The notes beneath the pieces were generated by a model that made no database searches, had not been told where the DNA came from, and saw only the letters and a program-made list of their open reading frames with translations. From positions 1 to 41,262 of the forward strand of contig JAFEGX010000114.1 in the NCBI GenBank assembly GCA_018239675.1: 41,262 nucleotides of DNA, written 5' to 3'. Positions 3,166 to 38,638 of this stretch are shown piece after piece (position 1 is the stretch's first letter; every line of letters begins with the position of its first letter). The stretch comes from Verrucomicrobiota bacterium (GTDB lineage Bacteria; Verrucomicrobiota; Verrucomicrobiia; Opitutales; Opitutaceae). The position numbers were made by a program, and so were the translations under genes.

Positions 3166-3262
3166 GCGGTCGAAGGCCGCAGGTCGAACGATCAAGGTCC
3201 TCCCGCGGCGTCGGAGCCGCGGACGGGACCTGAGACCTGGGAACTGTGACCTGCGACTTGCC
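3166..3262. repeat. imperfect inverted repeat built from CAGGT/ACCTG words
   Basis: In the rnhB to heparinase gap, an arm with GGTCGAAGG, CGCAGGTCG and CAAGGTCC words (3166-3201) is followed by an arm with GGGACCTGAGACCTGGG and TGTGACCTGCGACTTGCC words (3225-3262). The arms are roughly complementary but not exact. The right arm abuts a perfect GC-rich hairpin (3260-3290). Read on the minus strand this becomes hairpin then CAGGT words, the order also seen at 13179-13239, 22268-22325 and 33584-33645. Confidence 0.55.
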
Positions 3263-3290
3263 GGATTGCCGGCAGCGCCGGCAATCCGGC
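3260..3290. terminator. perfect 14-bp stem-loop, terminator-like without a T tract
   Basis: Positions 3260-3273 (GCCGGATTGCCGGC) are the exact reverse complement of 3277-3290, with a 3-base loop AGC. There is no clear T run after the stem, so intrinsic termination is doubtful. The stem lies 110 bases after the rnhB stop and about 100 bases before the heparinase-like start. It may be part of the repeat element rather than a classical terminator. Confidence 0.45.
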
Positions 3291-3391
3291 CTGAATGTTC
3301 GGGGAATTTATCTTGTTTGAGCGGGGGCCGGGCGCATGGTTCGCGCTGGCGCACCGGCCGCGCGGACGAGCCGGCGCGGCGCCTCCCGCCC

Positions 3392-6300
3392 ATGACCCTC
3401 CCGAGATTCCTGCGAGCCAGCCTGCTTTTTTTTGTCGGCGGGCTTAGCGTGCGGGCCGTGGAACCTCCGAACGACTGGTTCGCGCCGTGGGTCGACCAGC
3501 CGCCGCTCAAGGTCGGCGTGGTCCTGCCGCCGCGCGTGCGCACGCCACAGTGGCCGCTCAAGGACGCCCGCACCCTGGTGAGCGACGAGGAGATCCGCCA
3601 GGCGCGCGCGAACCTCGCGCAGTACCCGGCGGCGCGAAAGGTGGCCGACGAGATCCTCCGGGGCGCGGCGTACTGGCTGGACTGGGATGACGCCGCGCTG
3701 CGCGACCTGATCGCCTCGGCCGAGGTGCCGCGGGCGTTCGACTGCTGCCCGGCCGGCTGCCCGAAGTGCGGCAAGCGGATCTTCGAGGTCGCGAAGAGCA
3801 CCTACCCGTGGATCATCGACCCGAGGCGGCCGTTCAAGGTGCAATGCCCGATCTGCGGGACAATCTTCCCGAGCAACGACTATGGCCGGTTCTACCGGAG
3901 CGGCTTCAAGGACCGCAGCGACTTCAATGGTCCGTACGTCGACGACGGCCGGGGCTGGGTGGCGCCGGACGGCGAGCGCTATTGGTTCGTCGCGCACGCG
4001 AACCACTGGACCTGGTACTGGCACCCGCAGGCGGACCATCCGTCGCTCATGCGCGCCTGCGAGTACCTCGGCCGCGCCTACCTGCTCACCGGCGACCGCC
4101 GCTACGCGCACAAGGCGGCGGTGATCCTGCACCGCATCGCCGAGGTCTACCCGAACATGGACTACGAGAGCCAGTCCCGGTACGGCGAGATCTACCCGGT
4201 AACCGACCACCAGCGCTACACCGGCAAGGTGTTGAACGCGATCTGGGAGTCCTACCTCACGACCCAGCTGGCGGAGACCTACGACTTCATCTGGGAGACG
4301 ATTGACGGCGACCGCGACCTGCAGGCGTTCACGGGCAAGGACGGCCGGGCGATCCGGGCGTTCATCGAGGCCAATATCCTCGAGGACGCGATTGACGCGT
4401 ATTACGAGGTGAAGACCCGCGGCAACTACGGCATGCACCAGCGGTCACTGCTGACGCTGGCCGTCGTCCGCCAGCACGCGGACAACCGGCGCTACCTGGC
4501 GGACGTCGTGGACAAGCCCGACGGCATGATCTTCCTCGGGCTGCGGCATGCGCTCTACAGCCTGATCTGGCGCGACGGCCAGCCGTTCGAGGTCGGCGAC
4601 TACAATTTCACGTGGGTCCAGAACATCACGTCGGTCACGGGACTCCTGGCCAAGCTCGGCTACGACGTGCGCCAGGAGCCGCGGCTGAAGCGCCTGCTGG
4701 ACGCGCCGCTTGACGCCATCATCGCGGGGAAGTTCACGCCGGCCATCGGCGACAGCCAGACCGTGTATGGCTCGGCGGTGGGGCAGGACGCGGCCCTGTA
4801 CCAGCACGCGTGGCGCACCTACGGCGATCCGCGGTACGCCCGGTTTCTGGCGGGCTTCGGGGCGACGGGCGAAGGCTCGTTCCAGAGCTTCGCGTCGCTG
4901 CTGCACCCGCCGGTGCCGACGCCGGCGGACGCGCCCGCGCCGGGCCGGCTGCTGGAGCCGCAGGCGAGCCGGCTGATCTCGGGCTTCGGGCTCACCCTGA
5001 TGAACAACCCGGCCGACACCACGGGCTTTTCGCTCTACCACGGGCTGCACGTCTCGCACTTCCACTGTGACCGGCTGCACTTCGACATCTTCGCGCACGG
5101 GCAGGCGATGATGCCCGACCTCGGCTACCCGGACGGCGCGAACGCGATGGTGCCGGGCATCCACACCTGGTCGCTGAGCTCGGTGGCCCACAACACGGTG
5201 ACCGTGGATGCCGGCATGCAGCCGGGCAACGCGCCGGGCGTGGTCGAGCTGCAGGCCGACGGGCCGTGGGCGCGCGCCGCGGTCGTGAACGCGCCGGGCA
5301 CCTACCCGCAGTGCGAGGTTTACCGGCGCGCGATGGTGATGGTCGACGTGGACCCGGCGCGCAGCTATTTCGTCGACTTCTTCGAGGTCCGCGGCGGCCA
5401 CCAGCACGACTACAGCCTGCACGGGCCGCCCGGCGAATTCCATCTCGCGGGCGACGGCCGGTGGACCGACCCGGCGCCCGGCACGCTTGCCGGCGAGCAC
5501 GTGGCGGTCGGCGCGCTTTATGATGATCCGGTGCGCGCGGCGAACGGCCCGAAGACCGGCTACGCCGGCTACCGCGGATCGGGCTTCCAGCACCTGGTGA
5601 ACGTCCGGCGGCTGCTGACCGGAACCTGGAGCGCCGACTACGTCCACGAGCGCGACCCGCACGCCCAGCTGCGGCTCCGCGTGCTGCCGCAGCCCGGGCA
5701 GGAGACGATGCTCGCCGAGGCCCGGGTCTCGCCGGTGAAGTTCCCGCAGGTCCTCCGCTACGTGATCGCGCGCCGCCAGTCGCCGGGCGGCGCGCTGGCC
5801 AGCAAGTTTGTGAGCGTCATCGAGCCCCCCGACCGCACGCCCTACTTGCAGTCGGCGCTGCGGCTCGAGCTCGCCGCGGGCACGGCGGTGCTCGTGCAGC
5901 GGGCCGACGGCCGGACCGACGTGATCATCGAGGGCGAGCCGCAGGCGGTGAAACGCCTCGACGTCGCCGGCCATCCGCTCATGACCGACGCCCGCGTCGC
6001 GGTCTTCACGCTCGATGCGCAGGGAACGGTGGAGCGAATCTGGCTCGCGGACGGCCGGCAGGCCGAGGCGGACGGCATCAGTTTCGTGGCGGCGCCCGCG
6101 TGGCAGGGCACCGTGACCGCCGTCGATCTGGTCGCGGGCACCGTGCGGGTCCGCCCGGACCCCATGTCCGCGGGCCGCGACGCCGCCAGCCTGGCCGGCC
6201 GGGTGGCCCGCCTCGGCGCGGATGGCGGGACCGCGAACACGGTGACGGCCGCGCGCTGGGACGGCGACGAGCTCGTGCTGCGGATGCGCGACGACCTTCG

Positions 6301-6568
6301 CCTGGGCCTGGTTACGCTGACCGCGGTGGCGCCGGACCGGCTGGATACGGCCTCGAAGCTGGTCCTGGGCCCGGCCTGCGGCGGGGCCGGGTTGCGCAAC
6401 CCGGCGGGCCGCGTGGTGGGCCGCGTCCGGCAGGCCGCCGACTATGCGATCCTCCCGCGGGAGCCGGTCGCGCCGGACGCGCTGCGGCCGGGCGACGAAC
6501 TGTGGCTGACGCAGGTGGAGGCGGGCGACCGGATCGCGGTCCCCGCAGTGCTGGCGTGGAGCCGCTAG
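3392..6568 (+). CDS. Secreted heparinase II/III-like protein with zinc-ribbon insert (first paralog)
   Basis: A 1058-residue protein with a signal peptide (RFLRASLLFFVGGLSVRA). After a conserved start (PPLKVGVVLPPRVRTPQWP) comes a CxxC pair at Cys123/126 (CPKC) and another at Cys152/155 (CPIC), plus Cys118-119, suggesting a small zinc ribbon. An alpha/alpha toroid region follows, including RGNYGMHQ. The beta-sandwich half has HFHCDRLHFDIFAHGQ, PDLGYPD and VAHNTVTVDA, matching the heparinase II/III C-terminal domain, where His and Asp of these motifs bind a structural metal in Pedobacter heparinase II. Expected role: polysaccharide lyase in the periplasm or outside. The substrate is not predictable. 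The ATG at 3392 gives a clean signal peptide. It lies 10 bases before a second paralog. Confidence 0.85.
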   Translation: MTLPRFLRASLLFFVGGLSVRAVEPPNDWFAPWVDQPPLKVGVVLPPRVRTPQWPLKDARTLVSDEEIRQARANLAQYPAARKVADEILRGAAYWLDWDDAALRDLIASAEVPRAFDCCPAGCPKCGKRIFEVAKSTYPWIIDPRRPFKVQCPICGTIFPSNDYGRFYRSGFKDRSDFNGPYVDDGRGWVAPDGERYWFVAHANHWTWYWHPQADHPSLMRACEYLGRAYLLTGDRRYAHKAAVILHRIAEVYPNMDYESQSRYGEIYPVTDHQRYTGKVLNAIWESYLTTQLAETYDFIWETIDGDRDLQAFTGKDGRAIRAFIEANILEDAIDAYYEVKTRGNYGMHQRSLLTLAVVRQHADNRRYLADVVDKPDGMIFLGLRHALYSLIWRDGQPFEVGDYNFTWVQNITSVTGLLAKLGYDVRQEPRLKRLLDAPLDAIIAGKFTPAIGDSQTVYGSAVGQDAALYQHAWRTYGDPRYARFLAGFGATGEGSFQSFASLLHPPVPTPADAPAPGRLLEPQASRLISGFGLTLMNNPADTTGFSLYHGLHVSHFHCDRLHFDIFAHGQAMMPDLGYPDGANAMVPGIHTWSLSSVAHNTVTVDAGMQPGNAPGVVELQADGPWARAAVVNAPGTYPQCEVYRRAMVMVDVDPARSYFVDFFEVRGGHQHDYSLHGPPGEFHLAGDGRWTDPAPGTLAGEHVAVGALYDDPVRAANGPKTGYAGYRGSGFQHLVNVRRLLTGTWSADYVHERDPHAQLRLRVLPQPGQETMLAEARVSPVKFPQVLRYVIARRQSPGGALASKFVSVIEPPDRTPYLQSALRLELAAGTAVLVQRADGRTDVIIEGEPQAVKRLDVAGHPLMTDARVAVFTLDAQGTVERIWLADGRQAEADGISFVAAPAWQGTVTAVDLVAGTVRVRPDPMSAGRDAASLAGRVARLGADGGTANTVTAARWDGDELVLRMRDDLRLGLVTLTAVAPDRLDTASKLVLGPACGGAGLRNPAGRVVGRVRQAADYAILPREPVAPDALRPGDELWLTQVEAGDRIAVPAVLAWSR

Positions 6569-6578
6569 GTGGCGCGGC

Positions 6579-9500
6579 GTGATTTTCCCCATGATCATTT
6601 CCATGAAAACCTCCGTGATGCTCCTGCTGGCCGGCGTGTCGGCCACGGCGTGGGCCGGCCCGCTCTCGGGCCCGCAGCCGAACGACGACTGGGCGGCGCC
6701 CGGCAAGGCGCGGCCCCCGCTGAAGGTCGGGGTGATCCTCCCGCCCCGCGTCCGCACGCCGCAGTGGCCGCTGAAGGACGCGCGCACCCTGTTCACCGAC
6801 GAGGAGATCAGGACGGCCCGGGAGAACGTGGCGAAGTACCCCGCGGCCAAGCAAGTCGCGGCCGACCTCCTCAAGGAGGCCGACTACTGGGCCGCGTGGA
6901 GCGACGCCGACCTGCGGGACTTCGTGGCAACCGCCGAGGTGCCGCGCGACGCGGAGGTGAGCCCGGCGGGCTGTCCGATCCACGGGAAGCGGATTTTCGA
7001 GGAGACGGGCAAGTTCTACCCCTGGATCATCGACCCGCGCCAGCCGTTCAAGGTGAAGTGCCCGATTGGCGGCGAGGTCTACCCGAGCAATGACTACGGC
7101 CGGTTCTACCGGAGCGGCTTCAAGGACCGCCGCGACTTCAACGGGCCGTATGTCGACGACGGCCGCGGCTGGCTCGCGCCGAACGGCCAGCGGTACTGGT
7201 TCGTGGCGTATGCGAACCACTGGATGTGGACCATCCACGACACCTCGCCGCATCCCAGCATCCGAACCGGGCTGGCCGCGCTCGGCCGGGCCTACCTCCT
7301 GACCGGCGACCGGCGCTACGCGCACACGGCCGCGGTGCTGCTGCACCGCGTCGCCGAGGTGTACCCCAACATGGATTACGAGAGCCAGTCCCGGTACGGG
7401 CAGATGATGGCGGAGATCGACGGCTCGCGGTACACCGGCAAGGCCGTCAACGCCATCTGGGAAACCTACCAGGGCGCGCAGTACGCGGAGACGTACGACG
7501 CGGTGTGGGAGACGATCGACGGCGACATGGCGCTGCAGAAGTTCCTCGGCAAGGACGGCCGGTCGATCCGGGCGTTCATCGAGGCGAACCTGCTCGAGGA
7601 CAGCATCGACGCGATCTACGAGAAGCGCTCGCGCGGCAACTACGGCATGCACCAGCGCGCGCTGGCGATGCTGGCGATCGTGCGGCAGCACGGGGACAAC
7701 CGCCGCTTCCTGGCCGACCTGCTCGACCGGCCCGAGGGTTCCTCGTACCTCGGCCTCCGGCCCGCGCTGTACTCGCTGGTCTTGCGCGACGGCGAACCGT
7801 ACGAGTCGCCGGGCTACAACCTGCTCTGGGTCCAGAACCTGACCGCACTGGTCGGCCTGCTGCCGAAGCTGGGCGTGGACGTCTCGACCCTCCCGCGCCT
7901 GCGCCGGCTGTACGACGCGCCGCTCGCGGCGATCGCGATCGGGCGCCACACCCCGGCCATCGGCGACACCACCAGCATCTATGGCGGGGTGGTCGGCGAG
8001 GACGCGACCGTCTACCAGCAGGCCTTCCGCACCTATCACGACCCGCGCTACGCGCAGTTCCTGGCCGCGTTCGGTGCGGCGGGGGAGAAGGGTTTCCGCG
8101 ATTTCTACTCGCTGCTGCACCCGCCGGTCGCCGCCGCCGCGGCCCCGGCGACGCCGGCGCCCGACGCGCGCCGCGTGCCGCCGCAGCCGTCGCGGCTGCT
8201 TTCCGGTTTCGGCCTCGCGATCCTCAACGATGCGGCGGACGAGACGGCGGTGTCGCTCTACTTCGGCCAGCACGTGAACCACGCCCACTTCGACCGGCTC
8301 CATTTCGACCTCTTCGCGCACGGCTGGCCGATGATGCCGGACCTGGGCTATCCCGACGCGATGAACGTGTTTGTGGCGGGCGTCTGGACCTGGTCGGTGA
8401 ACACGATCGCCCACAACACCGTGACCGTGGACGCGTCGGCGCAGCCGGCCAATGTGCCCGGGCGCGTGGAACTGATGGTCGACGGCGGCTGGGCGCGCGG
8501 GCTGGAGGTGAGCGCGCTGGGCACCTACCCGCAGTGCAGCGACTATCGCCGCGGCCTCGTGATGGTGGAACATGGGACGGACCGCTACGTGGTGGATTTC
8601 TTCAACGTGGCCGGCGGCCGGGAGCACGACTACTCCCTGCACGGCCCGGCCGGGACCGCCACGCTGGCCGGCGGCGGCTGGTCCGCGCCCGCGCCCGGCA
8701 CCCTGGCCGGCGCGAACGTCAAGCTGGGCGAGATCTATGACAACCCGCAGATGGCGGCCGACGGCGAGAAGAACGGGTACTATGAGTACCGCGGCTCGGG
8801 CTTCCAGCACATCTTCAACGTCCGCCAGCGCGCGGCGGGCGATGCCGTGGTGGATTACGTGCACGACAAGGATCCGCGGGCCGCGCTGCGCATCCGGACG
8901 CTGGCGGCGCCGGACGTGACCCTGATGGCGGCGGACGCCCGGGTCTCGCCGGTGAAGAACCCGGCGCTGCTGAAGTTCATCATCGCCCGCCACGTCGCCC
9001 AGGGCGGCGCGCCGCTGAGGAGCGAATTCGTCAGCGTGATCGAGCCGAACACGAGCGGCGAGCCGCTCATTGCCGCGGTGGCGCGCGTGGCCTCCACCTC
9101 GGGCTCCGCGCTGCTGGTGACGCACGCGAACGGCGACCGGGACGTCGTGATCCACGATGTGGCCGGCGCGGCCAAGCAACTGACGGCCGACGGCCACGCC
9201 GTCGCGACCACCGCGCGCCTCGCGGTGGTGCGGTTTGGCGCGGACGGAAGGCTCGACCGGGTGTTCTTTGGCGGCGGCGGCCGCCTCACGGTGGACGGCC
9301 GGGAATTCGTGGCGCCGGCTGGGATCAGCGGTCCGGTGACCGGCGTAGATCTCCAGCATTCGACCCTGCGCATCCGCACCTCGGTGCCGGCGGAGGGGCT
9401 GGCGGGCCGGATCGTGGGCTTTGCGAACCCGCAGGCCCGCACCGCGCACACTATTAAGTCGGCGCACCGGGACGGCGACGATCTGGTCGTCGAGACGCAG

Positions 9501-9779: not shown

Positions 9780-9812
9780 CCGACTGCGCGCGGTGAGGCA
9801 CAACCACGCGTA

Positions 9813-10994: not shown

Positions 10995-11022
10995 GAGAAC
11001 GCGCTGCGCTCTCTGATAGATC

Positions 11023-11139
11023 GTAGCTGGCAGTTAGTAGCTGGTAGGGGATGGCGCACTTCCACGCGTCCGACGGACGCCCTGATCCCTTGGCCGCAAG
11101 AATCGAATGCTAGCTACTCGCTACCAACTACTGTCTACC
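11023..11139. repeat. inverted word repeat, TAGCTGGTAGTTA type
   Basis: Between the kinase and the GH2 gene, the arm 11023-11048 repeats GTAGCTGG-CAGTTAGTAGCTGG words. The arm 11109-11139 repeats the complementary words TAGCTACTCGCTACCAACTAC. The pairing is imperfect because each arm is itself an internal near-repeat that can align in several registers. About 60 bases separate the arms. The rest of the 242-base gap shows no gene. Confidence 0.6.
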
Positions 11140-11236
11140 CGTCGGGCCGGCTTGAAAGATCAAGGCCGGCGCGGCACCGCGCACACGGTTTCCCTTGCGG
11201 GAGGCGGGGCTTCGCGCTTCCTCGAAACCGACCCCG

Positions 11237-13195: not shown

Positions 13196-13208
13196 CGCCG
13201 CAGCGCGC
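13179..13208. repeat. 30-bp perfect palindrome centred on the GH2 stop codon
   Basis: Positions 13179-13193 (GCGCGCTGCGGCGCT) are the exact reverse complement of 13194-13208, with no spacer. The TAG stop (13193-13195) lies at the centre. In RNA this could fold as a hairpin over the end of the message, or in DNA as a cruciform. It is followed at once by a CAGGTGACAGGG arm. A similar stop-centred hairpin plus CAGGT arm is found at 22268-22325. Confidence 0.8.
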
Positions 13209-13239
13209 AGGTGACAGGGAGCAGGCCTCAGGTATCAGG
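13208..13239 (+). repeat. solo CAGGTGACAGG-word arm
   Basis: This contains CAGGTGACAGGGAGCAGG, CTCAGGTATCAGG and similar near-repeats directly after the palindrome. No clear complementary arm is seen in the rest of the 252-base gap. The words match the arms at 22291-22325 and 33599-33640. Confidence 0.55.
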
Positions 13240-13384
13240 TTGGACGGAATCCAAACGGGACGTGGGGCTCGCCAATAGGGTAGCCGGCGCCGGCTTGGCC
13301 TTCAGCGTTCGGCGTAGGACGTCCGGTGCCCGTAGTTCGGAACGAGCAGAGCTCCAGGGGCGAGGCCACCCTTCGACCGTTGCA

Positions 13385-20426: not shown

Positions 20427-20440
20427 TGGCTCTGGGAAAT

Positions 20441-20579
20441 GGCCAAGTGCCAAAGCGCCAAATGCCAAGCTGCGGTTTACAGAGGGAAAAGGGCATTTGG
20501 CCCGGTGCCGTCGGGCCTTCCGCGCCGTTCGGTCCCTCGCCCGTTGTTTGGCGTTTGGCGGTTTGAAGTTTGGCGTTTT
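20441..20579. repeat. inverted word repeat, GCCAAA/TTTGGC type
   Basis: The arm 20441-20470 (words GGCCAAGTG, CCAAAGCG, CCAAATG, CCAAGC) and the arm 20546-20575 (TTTGGCG, TTTGGCGG, TTTGAAG, TTTGGCG) pair at 22 of 30 positions without gaps. The central 75 bases contain a smaller GGCCCG/CGGGCC stem. The right arm is a dispersed repeat: 34 bases from 20547 match 35156-35189 at 30 positions. It lies between wzc and the tRNA-Gly promoter. Confidence 0.8.
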
Positions 20580-20610
20580 CAGGCCCGCTCCAGCGGCTCA
20601 AAAATAGCAG

Positions 20611-22283: not shown

Positions 22284-22292
22284 GCGCGGGGC
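22268..22292 (+). terminator. 10-bp GC hairpin with the stop codon in its loop
   Basis: GCCCCGCGCC (22268-22277) is the exact complement of GGCGCGGGGC (22283-22292). The 5-base loop contains the first two bases of the TAG stop codon at 22281-22283. No T tract follows; instead a CAGGTCGCAGG-word arm begins at once. It may terminate or protect the mRNA 3' end, but the arrangement repeats that at the end of the GH2 gene. Confidence 0.55.
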
Positions 22293-22460
22293 AGGTCGCA
22301 GGTCGCAGGAGGCAAGTGACAGGAAGGGTCCTGTCAGCCCATGGGTGACATCAATCATGAGTCGCCAAATAGGCTGACTTGACAGGCGAAGCTCAGGCTG
22401 AACGCGGCCAGCGCGGCTCGAATCCTGTTACTTGGTACCTGAATCTTGTTACCTGCCTCC
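22291..22460. repeat. inverted word repeat at a convergent gene junction, CAGGT type
   Basis: Left arm 22291-22326 (GCAGGTC, GCAGGTC, GCAGGAGGCAAGTGACAGG) and right arm 22421-22460 (TCCTGTTACTTGGTACCTG, AATCTTGTTACCTGCC). The block 22306-22326 pairs with 22421-22441 at 15 of 21 positions. It fills the space between the stop of the exported protein (plus strand) and the stop of ccoI (minus strand). The right arm shares CTTGGTACCTGA and CTGAATC words with the element at 33731-33773. Confidence 0.75.
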
Positions 22461-30475: not shown

Positions 30476-30494
30476 GGTCGGAGGAAAGGGACGG

Positions 30495-31134: not shown

Positions 31135-31581
31135 ATGTCCAAACGGCTCGCAGCGCTGCTGACGCCCCACCGGGCGGAAATCAAGGCCGCCTGGGACCGG
31201 GAGCTGCGCAAGGTGGGACCGCCGAATTCGGCCCTGGCGCTGCCGGACATCCTCGTCCACCGCATGGACGACACGCTCGACCTGTTCGCCTCCCTGCTGC
31301 GCCGGGAACCGGCGAAGCACTGGCCGAACGAGTCCGCCCCGGAGTGGTCCCACCTCCGCGACCACTGCCGCTGCGGGCTCAATCCGTTGCTGGACTATTT
31401 CGCGTCGGGCGGCACCGCGCTCCACGACGTCCTTCCGCAGCTGTCCGACCCCGACCGCCATGCGCTGGACCAGGCGTGGTACTGCCTGGCCCAGCAGGAG
31501 GTCAGCTGCCTCTGCGCCGTCTGCTGCCGCACCTGCCCGCCGTCGGTGCCGGCCCGCCACGCCTCCGCGCCGCTGGCCTGA
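31135..31581 (+). CDS. Cys-rich soluble protein, RsbRD-N-like, divergent from the cco operon
   Basis: A 148-residue protein. The first 60 residues are helical (LAALLTPHRAEIKAAWDREL, DILVHRMDDTLDLFASLLRR), similar in pattern to the N-terminal globin-like domains of RsbR/RsbRD-type sensors, though I cannot confirm homology. Eight Cys are placed as HCRC (78, 80), Cys117, and CLCAVCCRTC (125, 127, 130, 131, 134), enough to bind a metal or an Fe-S cluster. It is divergent from the cbb3 operon across a 188-base gap. A redox or metal sensor for that operon is a speculation. The protein lacks any obvious DNA-binding motif. Confidence 0.6.
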   Translation: MSKRLAALLTPHRAEIKAAWDRELRKVGPPNSALALPDILVHRMDDTLDLFASLLRREPAKHWPNESAPEWSHLRDHCRCGLNPLLDYFASGGTALHDVLPQLSDPDRHALDQAWYCLAQQEVSCLCAVCCRTCPPSVPARHASAPLA

Positions 31582-31632
31582 CGGCCGCGCGATCCGGGTT
31601 GTCTGCGGGGAGCCACCCGCCACCATCGGCGC

Positions 31633-32400
31633 ATGCCCCTGAGCCTCCACGACGCGGCGCGCCAGAATGGCCGCGTCATCTATCTCGAGCTGCTCGTCCT
31701 GGTCCTCTCGCTGTTTTCGCTCGGCGCCACGGCCGCGCTCTGGCTGGCCCCGCTTGAGCCGGAGACCCGGCTGCTGCTGCGGCGGGCCGACGATGTCGTG
31801 TGCGGCGTGTTCCTCACCGACTTCGTGGTCCACCTCTGGCTCGCGCCCTCCCGCCTGGAGTACCTGAAGTGGGGCTGGATCGACCTGCTCTCCAGCCTGC
31901 CCGAGGTCAGCTGGCTGCGGTGGGGCCGCGTGGTGCGGGTGTTCCGGATCCTGCGGGCCCTGAGCTCGCTCCGGGCGGTCTATCTACATTTCCGCGCCGA
32001 CCGCGCGCGCGGGGCGTTTGTCGCGGTCGGGCTGCTGTCGGTCATCGCCGTGCTGCTGGCAACCGTCGCCGTGTTCGAGTTCGAGCACGGCCAGCCCGGC
32101 GCGAACATCCACACGGCGGGTGACGCGCTGTGGTGGGCGTTCGCGACGATCACGACCATCGGCTACGGCGACCGCTATCCCGTGACCGGCGCCGGTCGCG
32201 CCGTGGCGGTCTGCCTGGTGGTCTTCGGGCTCAGCTTTTTCGGCACCTTCACTGCCTACGTCGCCAGCTTTTTCCTCGAGAAGGCGCAGCTGAAGGAGGA
32301 GTCGGAGATCCACCACCTGGTGCGCGAGGTGCGGGCGATGCGCGAGAAACTCGAGGCAATCGAGCGAAAGCTCCCGCCGGGTGGGGGAGCCGAACGCTAG
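31633..32400 (+). CDS. Voltage-sensor-type potassium channel
   Basis: A 255-residue inner-membrane channel subunit with six helices. The S4-like segment RWGRVVRVFRILRALSSLR has Arg at about every third position. The pore carries the potassium selectivity filter TIGYGD (residues 175-180) between the last two helices. The C-terminus is a coiled-coil-like stretch (EEDEIHHLV-type heptads, KLEAIERKL). It would form a tetrameric K+ channel. It starts 51 bases after the Cys-rich gene and may share its transcript. Confidence 0.9.
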   Translation: MPLSLHDAARQNGRVIYLELLVLVLSLFSLGATAALWLAPLEPETRLLLRRADDVVCGVFLTDFVVHLWLAPSRLEYLKWGWIDLLSSLPEVSWLRWGRVVRVFRILRALSSLRAVYLHFRADRARGAFVAVGLLSVIAVLLATVAVFEFEHGQPGANIHTAGDALWWAFATITTIGYGDRYPVTGAGRAVAVCLVVFGLSFFGTFTAYVASFFLEKAQLKEESEIHHLVREVRAMREKLEAIERKLPPGGGAER

Positions 32401-32402
32401 GA

Positions 32403-32455
32403 GTTGAACGTTGAAAGCTGAGAGTTGAAAGCCGGCCCAACTTTCAACCTTCAAC
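32403..32455. repeat. inverted word repeat, GTTGAAAG type, at a convergent junction
   Basis: GTTGAACGTTGAAAG (32403-32417) pairs with CTTTCAACCTTCAAC (32441-32455) at 14 of 15 positions. A second GTTGAAAG copy lies at the inner end of the left arm (32424-32431). It sits between the K+ channel stop (plus) and the AraC-type stop (minus), so could stop transcription from both sides. Confidence 0.75.
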
Positions 32456-32502
32456 CGGCCGCCAACAACCGGCCGCCTTCACTCGCCGCCCATCGCGCGG
32501 AC

Positions 32503-33411: not shown

Positions 33412-33422
33412 GTGGGGGAAGA

Positions 33423-33450
33423 TAAGTAGAAGACGATCGGGCCTGCGCAA
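33423..33450 (-). promoter_or_regulatory. candidate promoter of the AraC/PocR gene
   Basis: On the minus strand TTGCGC (33450-33445) and TACTTA (33428-33423) are 16 bases apart. The -10 box ends 11 bases before GTG 33411, which has no Shine-Dalgarno sequence. The resulting transcript would be leaderless or nearly so. This supports the shorter start. Confidence 0.4.
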
Positions 33451-33808
33451 TCCCGAAGCGGAGCGTTTAGGGCGGCAAAGACTTCACCCGCTCGTCCACG
33501 TTTTACAATGGGCATCCGCCCGCCGACCCCTCGGACGATGACAAATTATGCGGAGTAGGGGGCGCAGCAATATATGCTTATAGGCCGCCGGTGGCGGCGG
33601 CAGGTGACAGGGGACAGGGGATCCAAGTGGCAGGGTGGGATGCGGCGGGTGGCGAGCGGATCTTCACGGGGAAAGCCAAACCTGTGGTATGGGCTGGGTG
33701 ACAAAAGCGTCGAACAGCCACCGGACGCTGCCTCCCTTGGTACCTGATCCCTGAATCCTATTACTTTCCCTCCACAATCTCCATTGTCACCCGGCGGGCG
33801 GAGGAATT
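33451..33808. other. 358-base divergent intergenic region
   Basis: The region lies between the AraC/PocR gene and the mutarotase-like gene and holds no supportable ORF. From the left it has an AT-rich patch (ACAAATTATG, AATATATGCTTATAG at 33540-33582), the lowest GC here and a likely promoter or operator zone. It then has a GC hairpin, a CAGGTGACAGG arm and the complementary arm up to 33773. A good Shine-Dalgarno GGAGGAATT precedes the ATG at 33809. Confidence 0.6.
33584..33773. repeat. hairpin plus inverted word repeat, CAGGTGACAGG type
   Basis: A GC stem GCCGCC-GGT-GGCGGC (33584-33598) leads into CAGGTGACAGGGGACAGGGG and CCAAGTGGCAGGGTGGG (33601-33639). The opposite arm 33731-33773 has CCTCCCTTGGTACCTGATCC, CTGAATCCTATTACTTTCC. 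The right arm shares CTTGGTACCTGA and CTGAATC-N-T-N-TTAC words with 22421-22460. This element lies between divergent genes, unlike the convergent-junction copy. Confidence 0.65.
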
Positions 33809-34963
33809 ATGAAGAGGTTCTCCATGAAATCGTCGCTGCAACGTCAGGCCGGCCAGGCCGGCTGGAGTTTTGCCAACGGCCAGGTAAAGGCCTTCCTCAC
33901 CCGCACCGGCGGGCACCTGGCGCCGGTCGCGTTCCGGCTCGGACGGAAGGTGGTCACGCCGTTCTCGATCGCGCCCTGGAATGACGAGGCGCTGCCCGGC
34001 GTGCCCACCATGCTGCGCGTGCTGCGCGGCGACTTTTTCTGCGCCCCGTTCGGCGGCAACGCGGCGCCGTATCGCGGCGAGCGTCACCCGCCCCATGGCG
34101 AGCCGGCCAACCGCGACTGGACCTTCCAGTCGCTCAAGCGCGATCGGGACGCGGTCACGCTGCACGCCTCGATCCACACCCATGTCCGCCGCGGCCGCAT
34201 CGACAAGCGGCTCATGCTCCGCGCGGGTCACACCGCCGTCTACTGCGAGCATGTCCTGTCCGGCTACCGGGGCCCGATGCCGATCGGCACTCACCCGATG
34301 CTCCATTTTCCCGAGGCGGCGGGCCCGGCGAACATCACCACCAGCACCTTCCGGATCGGTCACGTGGTGCCGTCCGGCTGGGAGGAGCCGGCGGCGAAGG
34401 GCTACTCGTTCCTGCGCACCGGCGCGACCTTCTCGTCGCTGCGCCGCGTGCCGGACCGCGAGGGCGGCACCGTGGACCTCAGCGTGTTTCCCGCCCGGCC
34501 GGGCTACGAGGAACTCGTCCAGCTGGTGAGCGATGAGACCCGGCCCTTCGCGTGGAATGCCGTGACGTTTCCGGGCGCGGGCCAGGTGTTTTTCACGATC
34601 AAGAATCCGCGGGTCCTGCGTGAGACGGTCCTCTGGTTCTCGAACGGCGGCCGGCACTACCCCCCGTGGAACGGCCGGCATTGCAACGTGCTCGGCGTCG
34701 AGGACGTCACCGCCTACTTCCATCTCGGCCTCGCCGACTCCGTGAAGGCGAACCGGCTCACCCGGGCGGGATTCCCGACCGCCGTCCAGCTGTCGCCGCG
34801 CCGGCCCCTGCGGGTCGCGCACATCCTGGCAATGGCCGCGATTCCGCGCGGTTTCGATGCCGTGAAGAGCATCACGCGGCAGGGCGACGGCGTGAAGCTC
34901 ACCGCCCGCAGCGGCCGGAGCGTGAGCGTGCCGCTGGACATTGGATTCGTCACCGGCCGCTAG
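33809..34963 (+). CDS. Galactose mutarotase-fold (aldose epimerase-like) protein
   Basis: A 384-residue soluble protein of mostly beta structure. Motifs include TRTGGHLAPVAFRL at the start, LRVLRGDFFCAPFGGN, KRLMLRAGHTAVYCEHVLSG, PMPIGTHPMLHFP with a conserved His, and DVTAYFHLGLADS. The order resembles the galactose mutarotase-like superfamily, where a His and a Glu act on sugar anomers, but the assignment is by pattern only. The start ATG at 33809 has GGAGG at five bases. It is divergent from the PocR/AraC regulator, which may control it. Confidence 0.6.
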   Translation: MKRFSMKSSLQRQAGQAGWSFANGQVKAFLTRTGGHLAPVAFRLGRKVVTPFSIAPWNDEALPGVPTMLRVLRGDFFCAPFGGNAAPYRGERHPPHGEPANRDWTFQSLKRDRDAVTLHASIHTHVRRGRIDKRLMLRAGHTAVYCEHVLSGYRGPMPIGTHPMLHFPEAAGPANITTSTFRIGHVVPSGWEEPAAKGYSFLRTGATFSSLRRVPDREGGTVDLSVFPARPGYEELVQLVSDETRPFAWNAVTFPGAGQVFFTIKNPRVLRETVLWFSNGGRHYPPWNGRHCNVLGVEDVTAYFHLGLADSVKANRLTRAGFPTAVQLSPRRPLRVAHILAMAAIPRGFDAVKSITRQGDGVKLTARSGRSVSVPLDIGFVTGR

Positions 34964-34998
34964 CCGCGCCGGAGCCACGTCATTCTCGACCATTGGTT

Positions 34999-35036
34999 CA
35001 TCACGAAGGGCGCGAAGCGCACGAAGGCGTCGCGAG
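34999..35036 (+). repeat. solo CACGAAGG-word arm
   Basis: The word CACGAAGG-GCGCGAAG-CGCACGAAGG-CGTCGCG in the mutarotase to beta-helix gap. A matching form, TTCACCACGAAGGTCGCGGAGGACGCGAAG in pieces, lies at 36979-37008. No complementary arm is visible close by. This 283-base gap also holds the TTTGGCG-word run at 35155-35187. Confidence 0.5.
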
Positions 35037-35154
35037 CGGTGCCGGCCGGAGGGCCGGGTGGGCCAATCGACCGTGCCCTTTCGATTCATGCGGAATTGGC
35101 GGCCCGACCGGATTGAACCGGATTGCTGATGGCCGAGAGCCGCCGGCCAGTCCC

Positions 35155-35189
35155 TTTTGGCGTTTGGCGGTTTGGCCTTTGGCGTTTCC
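35155..35189 (+). repeat. solo TTTGGCG-word arm, copy of 20547-20580
   Basis: Repeats of TTTGGCG and TTTGGCC. 30 of 34 bases match 20547-20580 in the same order, including the unequal spacing of the fourth word. It lies about 60 bases before the hexapeptide-protein start. No second arm here. This shows the element is dispersed. Confidence 0.75.
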
Positions 35190-35246
35190 TTTTCAACGGG
35201 GACAAAACGCTGTTCCTCCGGCGCAAATTCCTCCACGCTGCGGGCC

Positions 35247-35930
35247 GTGAAAGCCTCCGACTTCTTCACCCTGCCGCCGTCGCTGGCGCCGTTTGCGGCG
35301 TCCTTTCCCGCCGACGTGGCGCCGTGGGAGTGGCTGAAGCGGATCGGGCCCGCGCTGGCCTCCCACGCTTTCGACCAGCCGCTGCCGGACCGGCCGCCGG
35401 GCGTGCACGTCGAGGGCTTCGTCTATCTGCATCCGACGGTGAAGCTGCCGCCGACCGCGACGCTCATCGGCCCGGCCTGGATTGGCGCCGGGACCGAGAT
35501 CCGGCCCGGCGCGTTTGTCCGGGGCAATGTCATCGTCGGCGAGCACTGCGTCCTCGGCAACTCCTGCGAGTACAAGAACTGCCTCCTGCTGGACCGCGTG
35601 CAGACGCCCCATTTCAACTACGTCGGCGACACGATCATGGGCAACCGGGCGCACTTCGGCGCGGGGGTGATCTGCTCGAACATCCGCCTGGACCAGCGCA
35701 ATGTCATGGTGCGCCTCCCGCACGGCCCGGCGGTCGACACCGGCCTCCGGAAGATGGGCGCCATCGTGGGTGACGAGGCAGAGGTGGGCTGCAATGCCGT
35801 GCTTCAGCCCGGGGCGCTGCTGGGTCGGCGCTCGCTCGTGATGCCGCTGACGAGCCTGTCCGGCTACCTGGCCCCGGCGACCATCGCGCACTCCCGGCAG
35901 GCGGTCAGCCACCTGCCGCGCCGGGATTGA
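35247..35930 (+). CDS. Left-handed beta-helix (hexapeptide) transferase-like protein
   Basis: A 227-residue protein starting at GTG 35247. After an N-terminal helical part the middle contains hexapeptide rungs of the [LIV]-G-x4 type: ATLIGPAWIGAGTEIRPGAFVRGNVIVGEHCVLGNSCEYKNC in pieces, and MGAIVGDEAEVGCNAVLQPGALLGRRS. The KNCLLLDRVQTPHFNYVGDTIMG segment resembles GlmU-type acyltransferase helices. The first GTG was chosen because the longer reading frame begins inside the TTTGGCG repeat. Likely a nucleotide-sugar or acyl-group transferase domain that has lost its catalytic partner. Followed by trpS 38 bases later. Confidence 0.75.
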   Translation: MKASDFFTLPPSLAPFAASFPADVAPWEWLKRIGPALASHAFDQPLPDRPPGVHVEGFVYLHPTVKLPPTATLIGPAWIGAGTEIRPGAFVRGNVIVGEHCVLGNSCEYKNCLLLDRVQTPHFNYVGDTIMGNRAHFGAGVICSNIRLDQRNVMVRLPHGPAVDTGLRKMGAIVGDEAEVGCNAVLQPGALLGRRSLVMPLTSLSGYLAPATIAHSRQAVSHLPRRD

Positions 35931-35967
35931 CGCCGGCCCGCGGGCTTCGCGACACTGGCCGCTTTCC

Positions 35968-36933
35968 ATGCGCACCCTCACCGGCATCCAACCCACCGGC
36001 ACGCTCCACATCGGCAACTATTTTGGCGCGATGCGGCCCGCGATCGAAGCGCAGTCGCGCGGCGACTGCTTCTACTTCATCGCCGACTACCATTCGATGA
36101 CGTCGATCACGAATGCCGCGGACCGGCGTGCCAACACCCGCGGCGTCGCGCTGGACTGGCTGGCCTGCGGGCTCGATCCCAAGACCAGCGTGTTCTGGCG
36201 GCAGAGCGACCTTCCCGAGGTCTGCGAGCTCACGTGGATGCTCGGCTCGCTGACGCCGATGGGGCTGCTGGAGCGCGCCCACAGCTACAAGGACAAGACC
36301 GCGAAGGGCATCGCGGCCAACTTCGGGCTGTTTGCCTACCCGGTCCTGATGGCGGCGGACATCCTGCTGTTCGACACCCAGCGGGTGCCGGTCGGCCGCG
36401 ACCAGAAGCAGCACCTCGAGATGAGCCGCGACATCGCGATCAAGTTCAACGAGGCGTACGGCGAGACCTTCGTGGTGCCGGAGGCCGAGATCCGCGACGA
36501 GGTCGCGGTGGTGCCCGGACTCGACGGCCAGAAGATGAGCAAGAGCTACGGCAACACGATCGAGATCTTCGGCGACGAGAAGGCGCTCCGGAAGAAGATC
36601 ATGGGGATCAAGATGGACAGCCGGACCCCGGCGGAACCGAAGCCCGACGCCGACAAGAACCTGGCGATCCAGCTGCTGCGGCTTTTCGCCCCGGCGGACG
36701 TGGCCCTCGACTTCGAGAACCGCCTGCGGGCCGGCGGCCTTGGCTATGGCGACCTGAAGAAGGCGCTCTTCGAACACTACTGGGCCTACTTTGCCGTGGC
36801 CCGCGCCCGGCGCGCCGAGCTGGCCGCCAATCCCGACTTTGTGGACAGCGTGCTCCGCGAGGGCGCCGAGCGCGCCCGCGCCGTCGCTCGCGTCGTGACC
36901 GCCCGCGCCCGCAAGGCCTGCGGTTTGGACTGA
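35968..36933 (+). CDS. trpS: Tryptophanyl-tRNA synthetase
   Basis: A 321-residue class I synthetase that charges tRNA-Trp with tryptophan. The HIGH-type motif is TLHIGNYFGA (His14 to Gly19) and the KMSKS loop is intact at residues 189-193 (GQKMSKSYGN). The tryptophan-binding region MLGSLTPMGLLERAHSYKDK is present, and the length is normal for bacterial TrpRS. It starts 38 bases after the beta-helix gene. A hairpin 75 bases after its stop may end the transcript. Confidence 0.97.
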   Translation: MRTLTGIQPTGTLHIGNYFGAMRPAIEAQSRGDCFYFIADYHSMTSITNAADRRANTRGVALDWLACGLDPKTSVFWRQSDLPEVCELTWMLGSLTPMGLLERAHSYKDKTAKGIAANFGLFAYPVLMAADILLFDTQRVPVGRDQKQHLEMSRDIAIKFNEAYGETFVVPEAEIRDEVAVVPGLDGQKMSKSYGNTIEIFGDEKALRKKIMGIKMDSRTPAEPKPDADKNLAIQLLRLFAPADVALDFENRLRAGGLGYGDLKKALFEHYWAYFAVARARRAELAANPDFVDSVLREGAERARAVARVVTARARKACGLD

Positions 36934-36978
36934 CGTTGGCCCGGTCTGGGACGGGGTCGAGTGCGTGCGGGTTGGGTG

Positions 36979-37008
36979 TTCACCACGAAGGTCGCGGAGG
37001 ACGCGAAG
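36979..37008 (+). repeat. solo CACGAAGG/GGAGGACGCGAAG-word arm
   Basis: Words CACGAAGG, TCGCGGAGG, ACGCGAAG in the 280-base gap after trpS, just before a stem-loop. It is similar to 34999-35036 (shared TTCAYCACGAAGG-KCGCG). No complementary arm follows. The rest of the gap to 37213 holds no gene. It ends with TAGAAT at 37195-37200, 13 bases before the ATG of the oxidase, a possible -10 box. Confidence 0.5.
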
Positions 37009-37037
37009 ATCGATCCGGCGCGTGCCGGATTGATTTT
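37009..37037 (+). terminator. stem-loop after trpS
   Basis: ATCGATCCGGC (37009-37019) pairs with GCCGGATTGAT (37024-37034) at 10 Watson-Crick pairs plus one G-T, around a GCGT loop. TTT follows the stem. It stands 75 bases after the trpS stop. A weak T tract makes termination uncertain. Confidence 0.5.
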
Positions 37038-37213
37038 GACCTGTTCTGCGCGACTGTCGCCCTGGATTTGGCTGGGTCCATTTTTGGATTTTGGGTGGTT
37101 GGCGGACTGAAGTGGGACGAACTTCGCGGGGTGGGGGCACCCCGCCCACACTCGAGGCGCGGGCCTTGGGATGAAATCGACAATCGAGCCCGTTCCTAGA
37201 ATCCTCCGCGCCC

Positions 37214-38491
37214 ATGAGCACCCCGCTTCCGCCTGACCCCGGGCCGGCCCGGCAGCGGGCGATTTACCTGCCGGGCCTGGCGGGTCGGCGGCCGCTGGCG
37301 CCGGTCGCGGCGGCCGAACTCGAGGCCCGGGCGCGCGAGGTGATGTCGGGGCGCGCCTTTGCCTACGTCGCCGGTGGCGCGGGCGCCGAGCAGACCATGG
37401 CGGCGAACCGCGCCGCGTTCGACCGACGGCAGATCGTGCCAAACGTGCTGCGCGACTCCTCCCGGCGAGACCTGTCGGTTGAACTGCTCGGCCGCCGGCT
37501 GCCCGTGCCGCTGCTGACCGCGCCAATCGGCGTGCTCGACCTGGCGCACCCCGACGCGGACCTTGCGGTGGCGCGCGCCGCGGCCGGTCTGGGGGTGCCG
37601 GTCATCTTTTCAAACCAGGCGTCCGTCCCGATGGAGGAGTGCGCGGCCGCCATGGGCGCCTCGCCGCGGTGGTTTCAGCTGTACTGGAGCTCGAGCGACG
37701 AGTTGGTCGCGAGCTTCGTGCGACGGGCCGAGGCCGCCGGTTGTGAGGCGGTGGTCGTGACCCTGGATACCTCCATCCTGGGCTGGCGGGCCCGCGACCT
37801 CGACCAGGCCTACCTGCCGTTCCTCGAGGGCCGCGGCATCGCGCAGTACACCAGCGATCCGGTGTTTCGCGCCCAACTGCGGGAGCCGCAGCCGGCTTTG
37901 CCGCGGCCTCCGGTCAATTTCCAGACCGCTGCCGCCGCGCTGGCGCAGAAGGCGAACTTCCCGGGCGGCCTCTGGCGGAATCTCTTCTCGGGCGAGCCGC
38001 GGGCGGCCGTGCAGCGGTTCTTCGCGACCTACTCGCGGCCCTCGCTCACGTGGGCCGACCTGCCGCGACTCCGCACCTACACCCGCCTGCCCATCATCCT
38101 GAAGGGCGTGCTGCACCCGGATGATGCGCGCCGGGCGCTTGATGCCGGCGTGGACGGTCTCGTGGTGTCGAACCATGGCGGCCGGCAAATCGACGGTGCC
38201 GTGGCGAGCCTGGATGCGCTCCCGGGCGTGGTGGCCGCGGTGGACGGAAGGATTCCGGTGCTGCTGGACAGCGGGCCGCGTGGCGGGGCCGATGTGTTCA
38301 AAGCCATCGCGCTGGGCGCCCGGGCCGTGCTGGTGGGACGACCGTTTGTCTATGGCTTGGCGTGCGCCGGCGAGGGCGGCGTCCGCGAAGTGCTCCAGAA
38401 TTGGATCGCCGAGCTCGACCTCACCCTGGCCCTGGCGGGCTGCCGCAGTCTGGCCGAGGTGAATCCGGCGATGCTGCGCGAGCAGGCATGA
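37214..38491 (+). CDS. FMN-dependent alpha-hydroxy-acid oxidase/dehydrogenase
   Basis: A 425-residue TIM-barrel flavoprotein of the lactate/glycolate oxidase family. It has the opening [26 protein letters not shown] phosphate contacts in [20 protein letters not shown], the base-stabilising Lys in [13 protein letters not shown] and the catalytic His321 in [20 protein letters not shown]. It would oxidise an alpha-hydroxy acid such as lactate to the keto acid. Two regions of 30 or so residues between barrel strands (about 195-245) are longer than in typical LldD. The physiological substrate and electron acceptor are unknown, so the symbol lldD is not given. It ends against a large hairpin repeat and plsC on the opposite strand. 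Confidence 0.88.
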
Positions 38492-38495
38492 GGCA

Positions 38496-38638
38496 TTTCA
38501 CAGGAGAGAACGGAGGGCACGGAGTGGGGAAACCGCTAATCTTCACTAATCACCGCTAATGGTTCCGAACCCGATTGGTGCGGATTAGCGAAGATTAGCG
38601 GTTACATTCCTCCGTTCCCTCCGTTTCCTCCTGTGAAA
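38496..38638. repeat. 56-bp-arm inverted word repeat at a convergent junction
   Basis: The arm 38496-38551 (TTTCACAGGAG, CGGAGGG, ACGGAG, then CCGCTAATCTTC-ACTAATC) and the arm 38583-38638 have identical length and pair at 47 of 56 positions around a 31-base loop. The two arms carry two word families in series, one GGAGG-like and one GATTAGCG-like. It fills the space between the stop of the oxidase gene (plus) and the stop of plsC (minus). The stem in RNA would be very stable in both directions. Confidence 0.92.

What the first reader, a model, noticed from the sequence alone, without database searches (positions are those of the whole stretch)
3166..38638. A dispersed system of intergenic word-repeat hairpins with several word families
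At least nine gaps carry arms made of near-copies of a 6 to 10 base word. Each gap uses its own word or shares it with another gap: CAGGT (3.2, 13.2, 22.3, 33.6 kb), TTTGGCG (20.4, 35.2 kb), GTTGAAAG (32.4 kb), GCTAACTAC-like (11.0 kb), CACGAAGG (35.0, 37.0 kb), GGAGG plus GATTAGCG (38.5 kb). Arms often occur in inverted pairs. The pattern suggests small non-coding elements that amplify words within an arm and can lose one arm to leave solo arms. I know of no formal description.
Basis: partly seen in the sequence, partly recalled or inferred. Interest (0 to 1): 0.78.

Follow-up and report, generated by a model that had tools for sequence, protein, structure and literature searches.

The report
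Mobile hairpins built from repeated words
The repeated-word hairpins between these genes look like worn-out or hollow copies of tiny mobile DNA elements that, in many groups of bacteria, carry one of two unexplained small genes, so they may reveal what those common mystery proteins do.

Summary
The word repeats are real. In 301 kb of this genome (not a random sample) strong inverted pairs occur in 19 of 131 gaps, against 1 of 131 matched coding segments and 0 of 262 shuffles. They are the arms of small elements that can carry one of two genes: S23/IVP ("four helix bundle", PF05635) or GxxExxY (PF13366, PD-(D/E)XK nuclease fold). S23 genes lie between inverted arms at 92 of 135 loci tested and GxxExxY genes at 51 of 59, over about a dozen phyla. 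Shifted flanks give 0-2 per set; a toxin-family control gives 0 of 29. The word is free but its length follows the gene family: 7 nt (minority 8) for S23, 8-10 nt for GxxExxY. Words co-vary with the protein. The window's arms are hollow, decayed or solo copies; those at 11.0, 20.4, 32.4, 35.15 and 38.5 kb have gene-carrying cognates in the same genome. The 38.5 kb family has 103 arm ends there, 0-5 in each of 11 congeners. Orthologous gaps are empty or hold other hairpins. Mobility in trans and word-by-word recognition are inferred.

The parts
3175..3262 (.). CAGGT-type word region, period 7 (S23-like by period only); pairing of the two halves not above shuffles
   Evidence: self-similarity score 26 at shift 7 for 3222-3262 and pair p=0.23; DNA fold z -3.1; best S23 arm matches 28 and 30, below the coding maximum of 32
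11020..11142 (+). hollow element, arms 11020-11050 and 11108-11142, words (G)TAGCTGGTAG / CTACCAACTAC
   Evidence: pair p=0.007; arms match flanks of own-genome S23 gene L002 (33, 30) and of L026 (42); DNA fold not better than shuffles
13205..13242 (.). solo CAGGT-type arm
   Evidence: best shift 7 but p=0.08; no partner; no clear cognate
20438..20582 (+). hollow element, arms 20438-20472 and 20543-20582, word CGCCAAA/TTTGGCG; orthologous gap empty in G010 and G001
   Evidence: pair p=0.003; fold z -4.1; arms match own-genome S23 gene L011 (42, 50); orthologs
22288..22460 (+). hollow CAGGT-type element, arms 22288-22330 and 22425-22460, period 7/14; G010 has a GATTAGCG hairpin in the same gap
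   Evidence: pair p=0.013; best S23 cognate L042 score 30, below the coding maximum of 32
32400..32466 (+). hollow element, word GTTGAAAG/CTTTCAAC, shared with G010
   Evidence: pair 0 of 300 shuffles; matches own-genome S23 gene L003 (44, 32)
33598..33770 (+). CAGGT-type arms 33598-33650 and 33735-33770; right arm resembles L189 S23 arm
   Evidence: left arm period 7 p=0.002; pairing not significant; best S23 match of right arm L189 score 33 against a coding maximum of 32
35000..35032 (.). solo CACGAAGG arm (GxxExxY type, 9-nt period)
   Evidence: best match GxxExxY L267 score 35 against coding 95th percentile 28 and maximum 36, so borderline
35152..35190 (.). solo TTTGGCG arm (S23 type)
   Evidence: matches own-genome S23 L011 score 52
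36980..37012 (.). solo CACGAAGG arm (GxxExxY type)
   Evidence: best match L328 score 34, borderline; tandem score p=0.13
38499..38635 (.). hollow GxxExxY-type element: ends CACAGGAG...CTCCTGTG, outer ACGGAGG words, inner GATTAGCG words (38530-38562, 38580-38612)
   Evidence: fold z -10.2; 103 arm ends in own genome; outer arms match own-genome GxxExxY gene L268 (40, 46), inner match L279 of G010 (41, 38) and own-genome L299 (39, 35)

Best explanation
The gaps hold copies of a class of small mobile hairpin elements. The gene-carrying form is [inverted arm of tandem words]-[one small gene]-[inverted arm]. The gene is either S23/IVP (a four-helix bundle protein) or GxxExxY (PD-(D/E)XK nuclease fold). 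The word sequence differs between elements, but both arms of an element use the same word, and the word length follows the gene family: 7 nt (minority 8), usually with an AG, for S23; 8-10 nt for GxxExxY. Hollow copies keep only the arms. Shown: the arm-gene association, the periods, word-protein covariation, dispersal, and presence/absence at orthologous gaps. Inferred: the protein binds the words, probably on one strand of an extruded DNA hairpin; an S23 pentamer would read about 4-5 words per arm, as ring proteins such as TRAP do (recalled); GxxExxY would cut DNA at such structures; hollow copies are moved in trans by a protein that knows their word. Words would be expanded by slippage and kept alike in both arms by template switching within the hairpin. 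Insertion seems to favour sites just behind stop codons, without target duplication.
For: Arms: S23 34/58 (own genome and relatives) and 58/77 (all phyla) score >=30 against 3.3% and 1.8% of mismatched pairs; the same loci shifted outwards 300/600/900 bp give 2/55, 2/36, 0/34 and 1/72, 2/69, 0/67. GxxExxY 26/30 in the genus (shifted 0/29, 0/28, 2/27) and 25/29 in other phyla (2/28, 1/27, 0/26). Control ParE 0/29 at 300 bp. Period: S23 mean autocorrelation 0.61/0.59/0.57 at shifts 7/14/21; GxxExxY 0.37-0.38 at 8-10. AG in 86% of S23 words against 64% (max 77%) permuted. Word-protein covariation r=0.24/0.20 for S23 (permuted max 0.053/0.056; outer flanks -0.04) and 0.195/0.234 for GxxExxY (max 0.114/0.099). 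7 of 20 window arms reach 26 against own-genome S23 flanks, random 36-mers 9%; GxxExxY cognates. Copy number 103 arm ends in the own genome, 0-5 in each of 11 congeners, reversed-pattern control 0. Orthologous empty or differently filled gaps. Catalytic E, D, ExK positions kept in GxxExxY (role recalled). Solved S23 relatives 2gsc and 2rld each list 5 chains. No G.U excess in arm mismatches. Within-element matching of outer arms above all 1000 partner shuffles.
Against: No transposition event or intermediate was seen. Empty sites come from species about 71-91% identical here, so junctions are not base-exact. No target duplication. S23 has no known catalytic activity, so how S23 elements would move is open. 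43 of 135 S23 loci and 8 of 59 GxxExxY loci fall below the arm threshold; in the own genome 6 of 10 testable S23 genes and 4 of 6 GxxExxY genes reach it. Direct (not inverted) flank matches >=30 also occur: 3/58, 11/77, 4/30, 10/29, partly because one flank can hold a whole hairpin. Inside the 38.5 kb family only 5 of 28 interiors pair better than the 95th percentile of cross pairs, and the shuffle maximum for compensated cells equals the observed 20. CAGGT and CACGAAGG cognates are borderline. S23 and GxxExxY loci are best hits, not a random sample. Covariation can come from co-descent without recognition; only 3 kept GxxExxY pairs are closely similar.
Confidence: 0.75

Rival explanations
1. 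RNA-level elements, as the rRNA intervening sequences are: the arms matter as a transcript stem cut by RNase III, and S23 binds RNA; spread is by rare copying, not by an element-encoded DNA reaction.
For: S23 is the protein of rRNA intervening sequences with complementary ends that RNase III removes (PMC4990558, passages). Copies sit close to stop codons. S23 has weak similarity to the Avd protein of retroelements. Mismatches lean slightly to A.C in two sets (p=0.046 and 0.058), which would be G.U on the other strand.
Against: No G.U excess on the gene-sense strand: 53 GU to 60 AC, 66 to 92, 20 to 35. GxxExxY has a DNA-nuclease fold by family name. No reverse transcriptase matched in the own genome.
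Confidence: 0.2
2. S23 and GxxExxY genes are passengers that enter hairpins made by some other mobile element or by host processes.
For: Neither family is a known transposase; no target duplication; the copies of the 38.5 kb family that I read are hollow except L268.
Against: Word length follows the gene family, words follow the protein, and gene-bearing and hollow forms share words in the same genome.
Confidence: 0.12
3. They are REP/RAYT palindromes moved by Y1 transposases.
For: REPs are abundant in O. terrae, a Verrucomicrobia species (PMC3733652, passages); Y1_Tnp occurs in 41 of 57 genomes searched, and what looks like one sits in congener G005 at the orthologous 37-38.5 kb site (by eye).
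Against: No Y1_Tnp match in the own genome. Inverted repeats around Y1 genes (24 of 29 within 800 bp) are shared between loci (0 of 29 above the 99th percentile of cross pairs) and their mean autocorrelation stays at 0.35 or less, although single arms do best at shift 7.
Confidence: 0.04
4. Chance or base composition.
For: Several window arms are short and weakly paired.
Against: 1 of 131 coding segments and 0 of 262 shuffles against 19 of 131 gaps; shifted-flank and ParE controls.
Confidence: 0.02

Closest known systems
REP/REPIN elements with RAYT transposases, and TIRYT/TIRtrons (PMC3733652, abstract and passages)
   Same: short intergenic palindromes, many hollow copies, an associated gene flanked by the same repeats, species-specific amplification
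   Different: different proteins; fixed palindrome or TIR sequence instead of tandem words with a free sequence and a family-specific period; no Y1_Tnp matched in this genome
23S rRNA intervening sequences with S23/IVP (PMC4990558, abstract and passages; PMC11270868, passages)
   Same: same protein family inside a hairpin; mobility suspected since the early 1990s (as reported in PMC4990558); ORF-less insertions occur in rRNA genes too
   Different: here intergenic and multi-copy, with periodic word arms and hollow copies; the window has no rRNA hit
MITEs (recalled)
   Same: non-autonomous copies with inverted ends matching a gene-bearing partner
   Different: no target duplication found, no known transposase, arms made of tandem words
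Diversity-generating retroelement Avd (PMC10053308, passages)
   Same: Avd is related to PF05635
   Different: no reverse transcriptase matched in the own genome; no TR/VR pair was looked for
Intergenic TAACTGA heptamer repeats of Beggiatoaceae (PMC4679880, start of abstract and passages)
   Same: 7-nt intergenic direct repeats
   Different: one fixed word, near start codons, one inverted set in 170; no S23 link in the passages seen

Membership tests
REP/RAYT | Y1 (HUH) transposase in the genome | tested here: not met
   0 matches to PF01797 in own genome, 95.5% complete
REP/RAYT | fixed palindromic repeat shared by all copies and flanking the transposase gene | tested here: not met
   words differ by element; Y1 inverted repeats are shared between loci and lack a comparable period
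S23/IVP intervening sequence | S23-family ORF inside inverted complementary ends | tested here: met
   92 of 135 S23 loci with arms >=30; the window copies themselves are hollow or solo
S23/IVP intervening sequence | location in an rRNA gene | tested here: not met
   Rfam at gathering threshold finds only a tRNA in the window; S23 loci elsewhere were not checked for rRNA
S23/IVP intervening sequence | excision by RNase III | not testable with these tools
   needs RNA experiments
MITE | hollow copies share ends or arms with a gene-bearing partner in the same genome | tested here: met
   L268 and L299 for 38.5 kb; L002, L003, L011 for 11.0, 32.4, 20.4 and 35.15 kb
MITE | target-site duplication | tested here: not met
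   33 of 42 sources with both ends (one of them, L291, with a wrong right end), lengths 2-12 nt, all p>=0.096
MITE | known transposase in the partner | tested here: not met
   partner genes are named four helix bundle and GxxExxY only
Diversity-generating retroelement | reverse transcriptase | tested here: not met
   0 matches to PF00078 in own genome
PD-(D/E)XK nuclease (GxxExxY) | conserved acid, D, ExK catalytic set | tested here: met
   E23, D63, E73, K75 invariant or at least 90% in 16 sequences; which residues are catalytic is recalled; no solved relative by sequence
PD-(D/E)XK nuclease (GxxExxY) | nuclease activity | not testable with these tools
   needs purified protein

The most novel reading that the evidence does not exclude
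S23/IVP and GxxExxY proteins, two widespread uncharacterised families, are the mobilisers of a new class of bacterial element whose recognition sites are runs of short words. The protein family fixes the word length (7, or 8-10 nt) while the word itself can drift and be re-copied into both arms, so that each lineage carries its own address and drives its own population of hollow copies.
Probability: 0.5. Interest if true: 0.93.

Novelty: categorically new. Interest (0 to 1): 0.86.

Why it matters
It gives a genomic role to two protein families that databases name only by fold or signature ("four helix bundle protein", "GxxExxY protein"). It explains text-like repeats in gene gaps. It makes the old question whether rRNA intervening sequences are mobile directly testable, because intergenic relatives with arms exist in cultured genera such as Flavobacterium and Chryseobacterium (S23 loci). 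A recognition system with fixed period and free word would also be an unusual way for a mobile element to change its address.

Tried and rejected
REP/RAYT origin: rejected, no Y1_Tnp match in the own genome and different arm anatomy. Reverse-transcriptase or DGR origin: no RVT_1 match in the own genome. Sense-strand RNA stem kept by G.U tolerance: no excess. Target duplication: none. Insertion into the apex of existing hairpins (flanks palindromic): weak only, best p=0.003 at 8 nt, uncorrected, p=0.52 at 3 nt; kept as an idea. A first alignment scoring was too permissive (true and mismatched pairs overlapped) and was replaced. Random own-genome genes gave 11 of 208 at >=30; a near-identical listing shows 11, of which six sit beside word elements, one being S23 gene L004 itself, and five look like GC-rich coding matches. 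ParE at 700 bp gave 2 of 29 (cross pairs 3.0%); one of them, L383, has word-like arms. Defence-system reading: only a weak Cas4 hit (E=4e-4) for one of five proteins. Structure prediction was not run: its stated rule does not list loci from the genome search, and the viral scan meant to supply GxxExxY loci found none. The 14 S23 loci from viral contigs were not analysed.

Literature: eight searches (open-access PMC only, no bioRxiv) listed nothing that I could recognise as describing word arms around S23 or GxxExxY genes. I saw listings, and passages of the papers cited, not whole texts. Subscription papers and preprints were not searchable.
Full report
What was claimed. I read each gap and tested pairing and tandem structure. 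15 of 19 arms have tandem structure beyond coding 36-mers at p<=0.05 (uncorrected), and in 5 of 10 gaps (38.5, 32.4, 20.4, 11.0, 22.3 kb) word-made inverted pairing exceeds shuffles; 3.2, 13.2, 33.6 and 35.0 kb do not pair significantly. In 301,262 bases of this genome (window plus 13 stretches of 20 kb from contigs C18, C51, C53 and C87, which I knew to carry copies, so not a random sample) 19 of 131 gaps of 60-500 bp contain a strong inverted pair, against 1 of 131 matched coding segments and 0 of 262 shuffled gaps. Only one of the 16 window gaps reaches that level. So the pattern is real, but most window copies are worn.

The key link. A search for S23/IVP (PF05635) in the window's own genome gave 11 genes, and flanks of most carry words in inverted orientation, several of them the window's words: TAGCTAGTAG (as at 11.0 kb), GTTGAAAG (as at 32.4 kb), CCAAACG (as at 20.4 and 35.15 kb). 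Scoring upstream flank against reverse-complemented downstream flank, 34 of 58 loci from this genome and its relatives reach 30 (60 fetched, 2 with short flanks dropped), against 3.3% of mismatched pairs; of the own genome's 10 testable genes 6 do, and L002, the cognate of 11.0 kb, has 26. Among 80 named loci from many phyla (the best 80 of at least 561 relatives) 77 had flanks and 58 reach 30, against 1.8%. Shifting the same flanks outward by 300, 600 or 900 bp leaves 0-2 per set. By the record titles the 58 include Nitrospirae, KSB1, Desulfobacteraceae, Bacteroidetes, Elusimicrobia, Planctomycetota, Acidobacteria, Proteobacteria, Thermaceae, Omnitrophica, Clostridia, Cloacimonadota, Kiritimatiellaeota, SAR324/Lambdaproteobacteria and CPR bacteria.

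The second gene family. Words without an S23 partner (CACGAAGG, ACGGAGG, GATTAGCG) led me to GxxExxY (PF13366, TIGR04256). It has 47 matches in 12 of 12 genomes of the genus. 26 of 30 loci fetched reach 30, against 4.5% of mismatched pairs, and shifted flanks give 0/29, 0/28 and 2/27. In 40 genomes that hold named S23 loci 21 have the family, and 25 of 29 usable loci (30 fetched) reach 30, against 2.6%. The own genome holds the partners of the 38.5 kb element: L268 with ACAGGAGGCAACGGAGG arms (score 40 and 46 against the window's outer arms) and L299 with GCTAAT arms (39 and 35 against the inner arms). Four of its six GxxExxY genes reach 30. Positions that I recall as catalytic in the PD-(D/E)XK fold are kept, although no solved structure is related by sequence.

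Controls. ParE toxin genes, also small and scattered, give 0 of 29 at 300 bp and 2 of 29 at 700 bp (cross pairs 3.0%), one of them with word-like arms. Y1 transposase genes do have inverted repeats (8 of 29 at 300 bp, 24 of 29 at 800 bp), but these are largely the same from locus to locus (cross pairs 8.1% and 13.4%; 1 and 0 above the 99th percentile) and their mean autocorrelation stays at 0.35 or less, though single arms do best at shift 7. Random own-genome genes give 11 of 208, about half of them beside word elements. Direct matches >=30 between the two flanks also occur, at 3/58, 11/77, 4/30 and 10/29.

The period rule. In 95 S23 elements mean arm autocorrelation is 0.61, 0.59 and 0.57 at shifts 7, 14 and 21, with 0.37 and 0.39 at 8 and 16. 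In 51 GxxExxY elements it is 0.37-0.38 at 8, 9 and 10. S23 words contain AG in 86% of cases against 64% (maximum 77% of 200) after permuting letters within words; arms have a median of 33 nt, and my rough count gives 4 or 5 words in 46 of 95. GxxExxY words show no AG excess. By this rule the window's CAGGT arms (best shift 7 or 14) are S23-like, CACGAAGG (9) and 38.5 kb (9 and 10/20) GxxExxY-like.

Arms and gene travel together. Over 138 S23 loci, protein similarity correlates with word similarity (r=0.24; 500 permutations at most 0.053), also when the 5' arm of one element is compared with the 3' arm of another (0.20; at most 0.056), and not with outer flanks (-0.04). Among 10 pairs with protein similarity >=0.8 and unrelated outer flanks, 9 share 5'-arm words. 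GxxExxY behaves alike (0.195 and 0.234 against maxima 0.114 and 0.099), but only 3 kept pairs are closely similar.

Dispersal. The 38.5 kb element is one of a family with ends CACAGGAG and CTCCTGTG: 53 forward and 50 reverse exact arm ends in this genome, 0-5 in each of 11 congeners, 0 for the reversed pattern. GATTAGCGNNGATTAG has 16 hits here, 4 in G010, whose GxxExxY gene L279 carries that word, and 0 in the other ten, G007 with its similar L265 among them; the reversed pattern had 1 hit, in G010. Of 42 sources examined 33 have both ends. Outer arms are conserved, while the interior varies from nothing (53-54 bp elements) to nested hairpins of other words. In 32 elements the outer arms match each other better than in any of 1000 partner shuffles (0.898 against at most 0.892), with 20 compensated cells against a shuffle mean of 9.3 and maximum of 20; of 28 interiors only 5 pair above the 95th percentile of cross pairs. 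Of 30 copies with enough flank, 23 had both neighbours called by my ORF heuristic: 10 lie between convergent genes (background 32 of 138), and 24 of 30 facing gene 3' ends are 5-20 nt away.

Orthologous gaps. Against congeners the 20.4 kb gap lacks the insert in G010 and G001 and holds a different hairpin in G002. The 22.3 kb gap holds a GATTAGCG hairpin in G010. The 35 kb gap lacks the inserts in G010, G001 and G003. At 37-38.5 kb G001, G002 and G003 have neither hairpin nor the FMN dehydrogenase gene. The 32.4 kb element is shared with G010. Identity of about 71-91% does not allow base-exact junctions.

Mechanism. Mismatches between arms show no excess of G.U over A.C on the gene-sense strand (53/60, 66/92, 20/35; a slight lean the other way, p=0.57, 0.046, 0.058), so a sense-strand RNA stem is probably not what keeps the arms alike. 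I favour a DNA hairpin or single strand read word by word by the protein. S23 relatives 2gsc and 2rld each list five chains; a pentamer with about five words per arm would fit, in the manner of ring proteins such as TRAP (recalled). GxxExxY would cut. Slippage (L296) and template switching inside the hairpin (recalled mechanism) would expand and homogenise words. These steps are inference.

Known work. S23 was known from rRNA intervening sequences with complementary ends, where mobility was suspected (PMC4990558, abstract and passages), and IVP ORFs are scattered over rRNA insertion sites of CPR bacteria (PMC11270868, passages). IVP genes were also noted near cas genes (PMC3936711, passage). 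PF05635 resembles Avd (PMC10053308, passages). REP/RAYT and TIRYT elements are the nearest in lifestyle (PMC3733652, passages). Eight searches of an open-access library listed nothing on word arms around S23 or GxxExxY genes. I rate it categorically new because the mobilising proteins, if they are such, and arms with a fixed period but a free word match no kind I know; the hollow-plus-autonomous lifestyle itself is known.

Verdict. That such arms belong to S23 and GxxExxY elements I hold at about 0.95 for the class and for the window's strong gaps; that hollow copies are moved by the cognate protein, about 0.7; that the protein reads the words, about 0.5.

Noticed in passing
window 37214-38491: FMN-dependent dehydrogenase gene (PF01070) that is missing at the orthologous place in G001, G002, G003 and G010, lying between a solo CACGAAGG arm and the 38.5 kb hairpin.
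   Followed up: partly
window 37126-37152: A GC-rich palindrome-like stretch 96% identical to repeats at both ends of an insertion in congener G005 at the orthologous site; the insertion looks by eye like a REP-associated transposase gene.
   Followed up: partly
L116 (G005) and L121 (G008), orthologs of window 33.6 and 35 kb gaps: Other hairpin families in the same gaps: TGTCATTCTGAGC-like ends with GCTCAGAATGACA (G005 at 35 kb, G008 at 33.6 kb) and GTAGCAGCCGACGTAAGGAGGCTG (G008 at 35 kb).
   Followed up: no
L141, L142, L143, L146: Concentric hairpins in which ACGGAGG arms enclose arms of a GGATTT word, as if elements had entered one another's centre.
   Followed up: partly
L154:17300-18337: A gene flanked by about 170-bp inverted copies of one hairpin element with GCACAAAAGG words (score 155).
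   Followed up: no
L241-L254: 14 S23-like genes in viral contigs; their flanks were not examined.
   Followed up: no
L161, L162, L163, L167, L229 and L013, L041: The word AGGCACAA is shared by S23 elements of Nitrospirae, KSB1, Desulfobacteraceae, Elusimicrobia, SAR324 and an order relative of the window, which suggests transfer between phyla or a long-lived word.
   Followed up: no
L010 and L037: S23 copies with an in-frame stop, apparently decaying.
   Followed up: no
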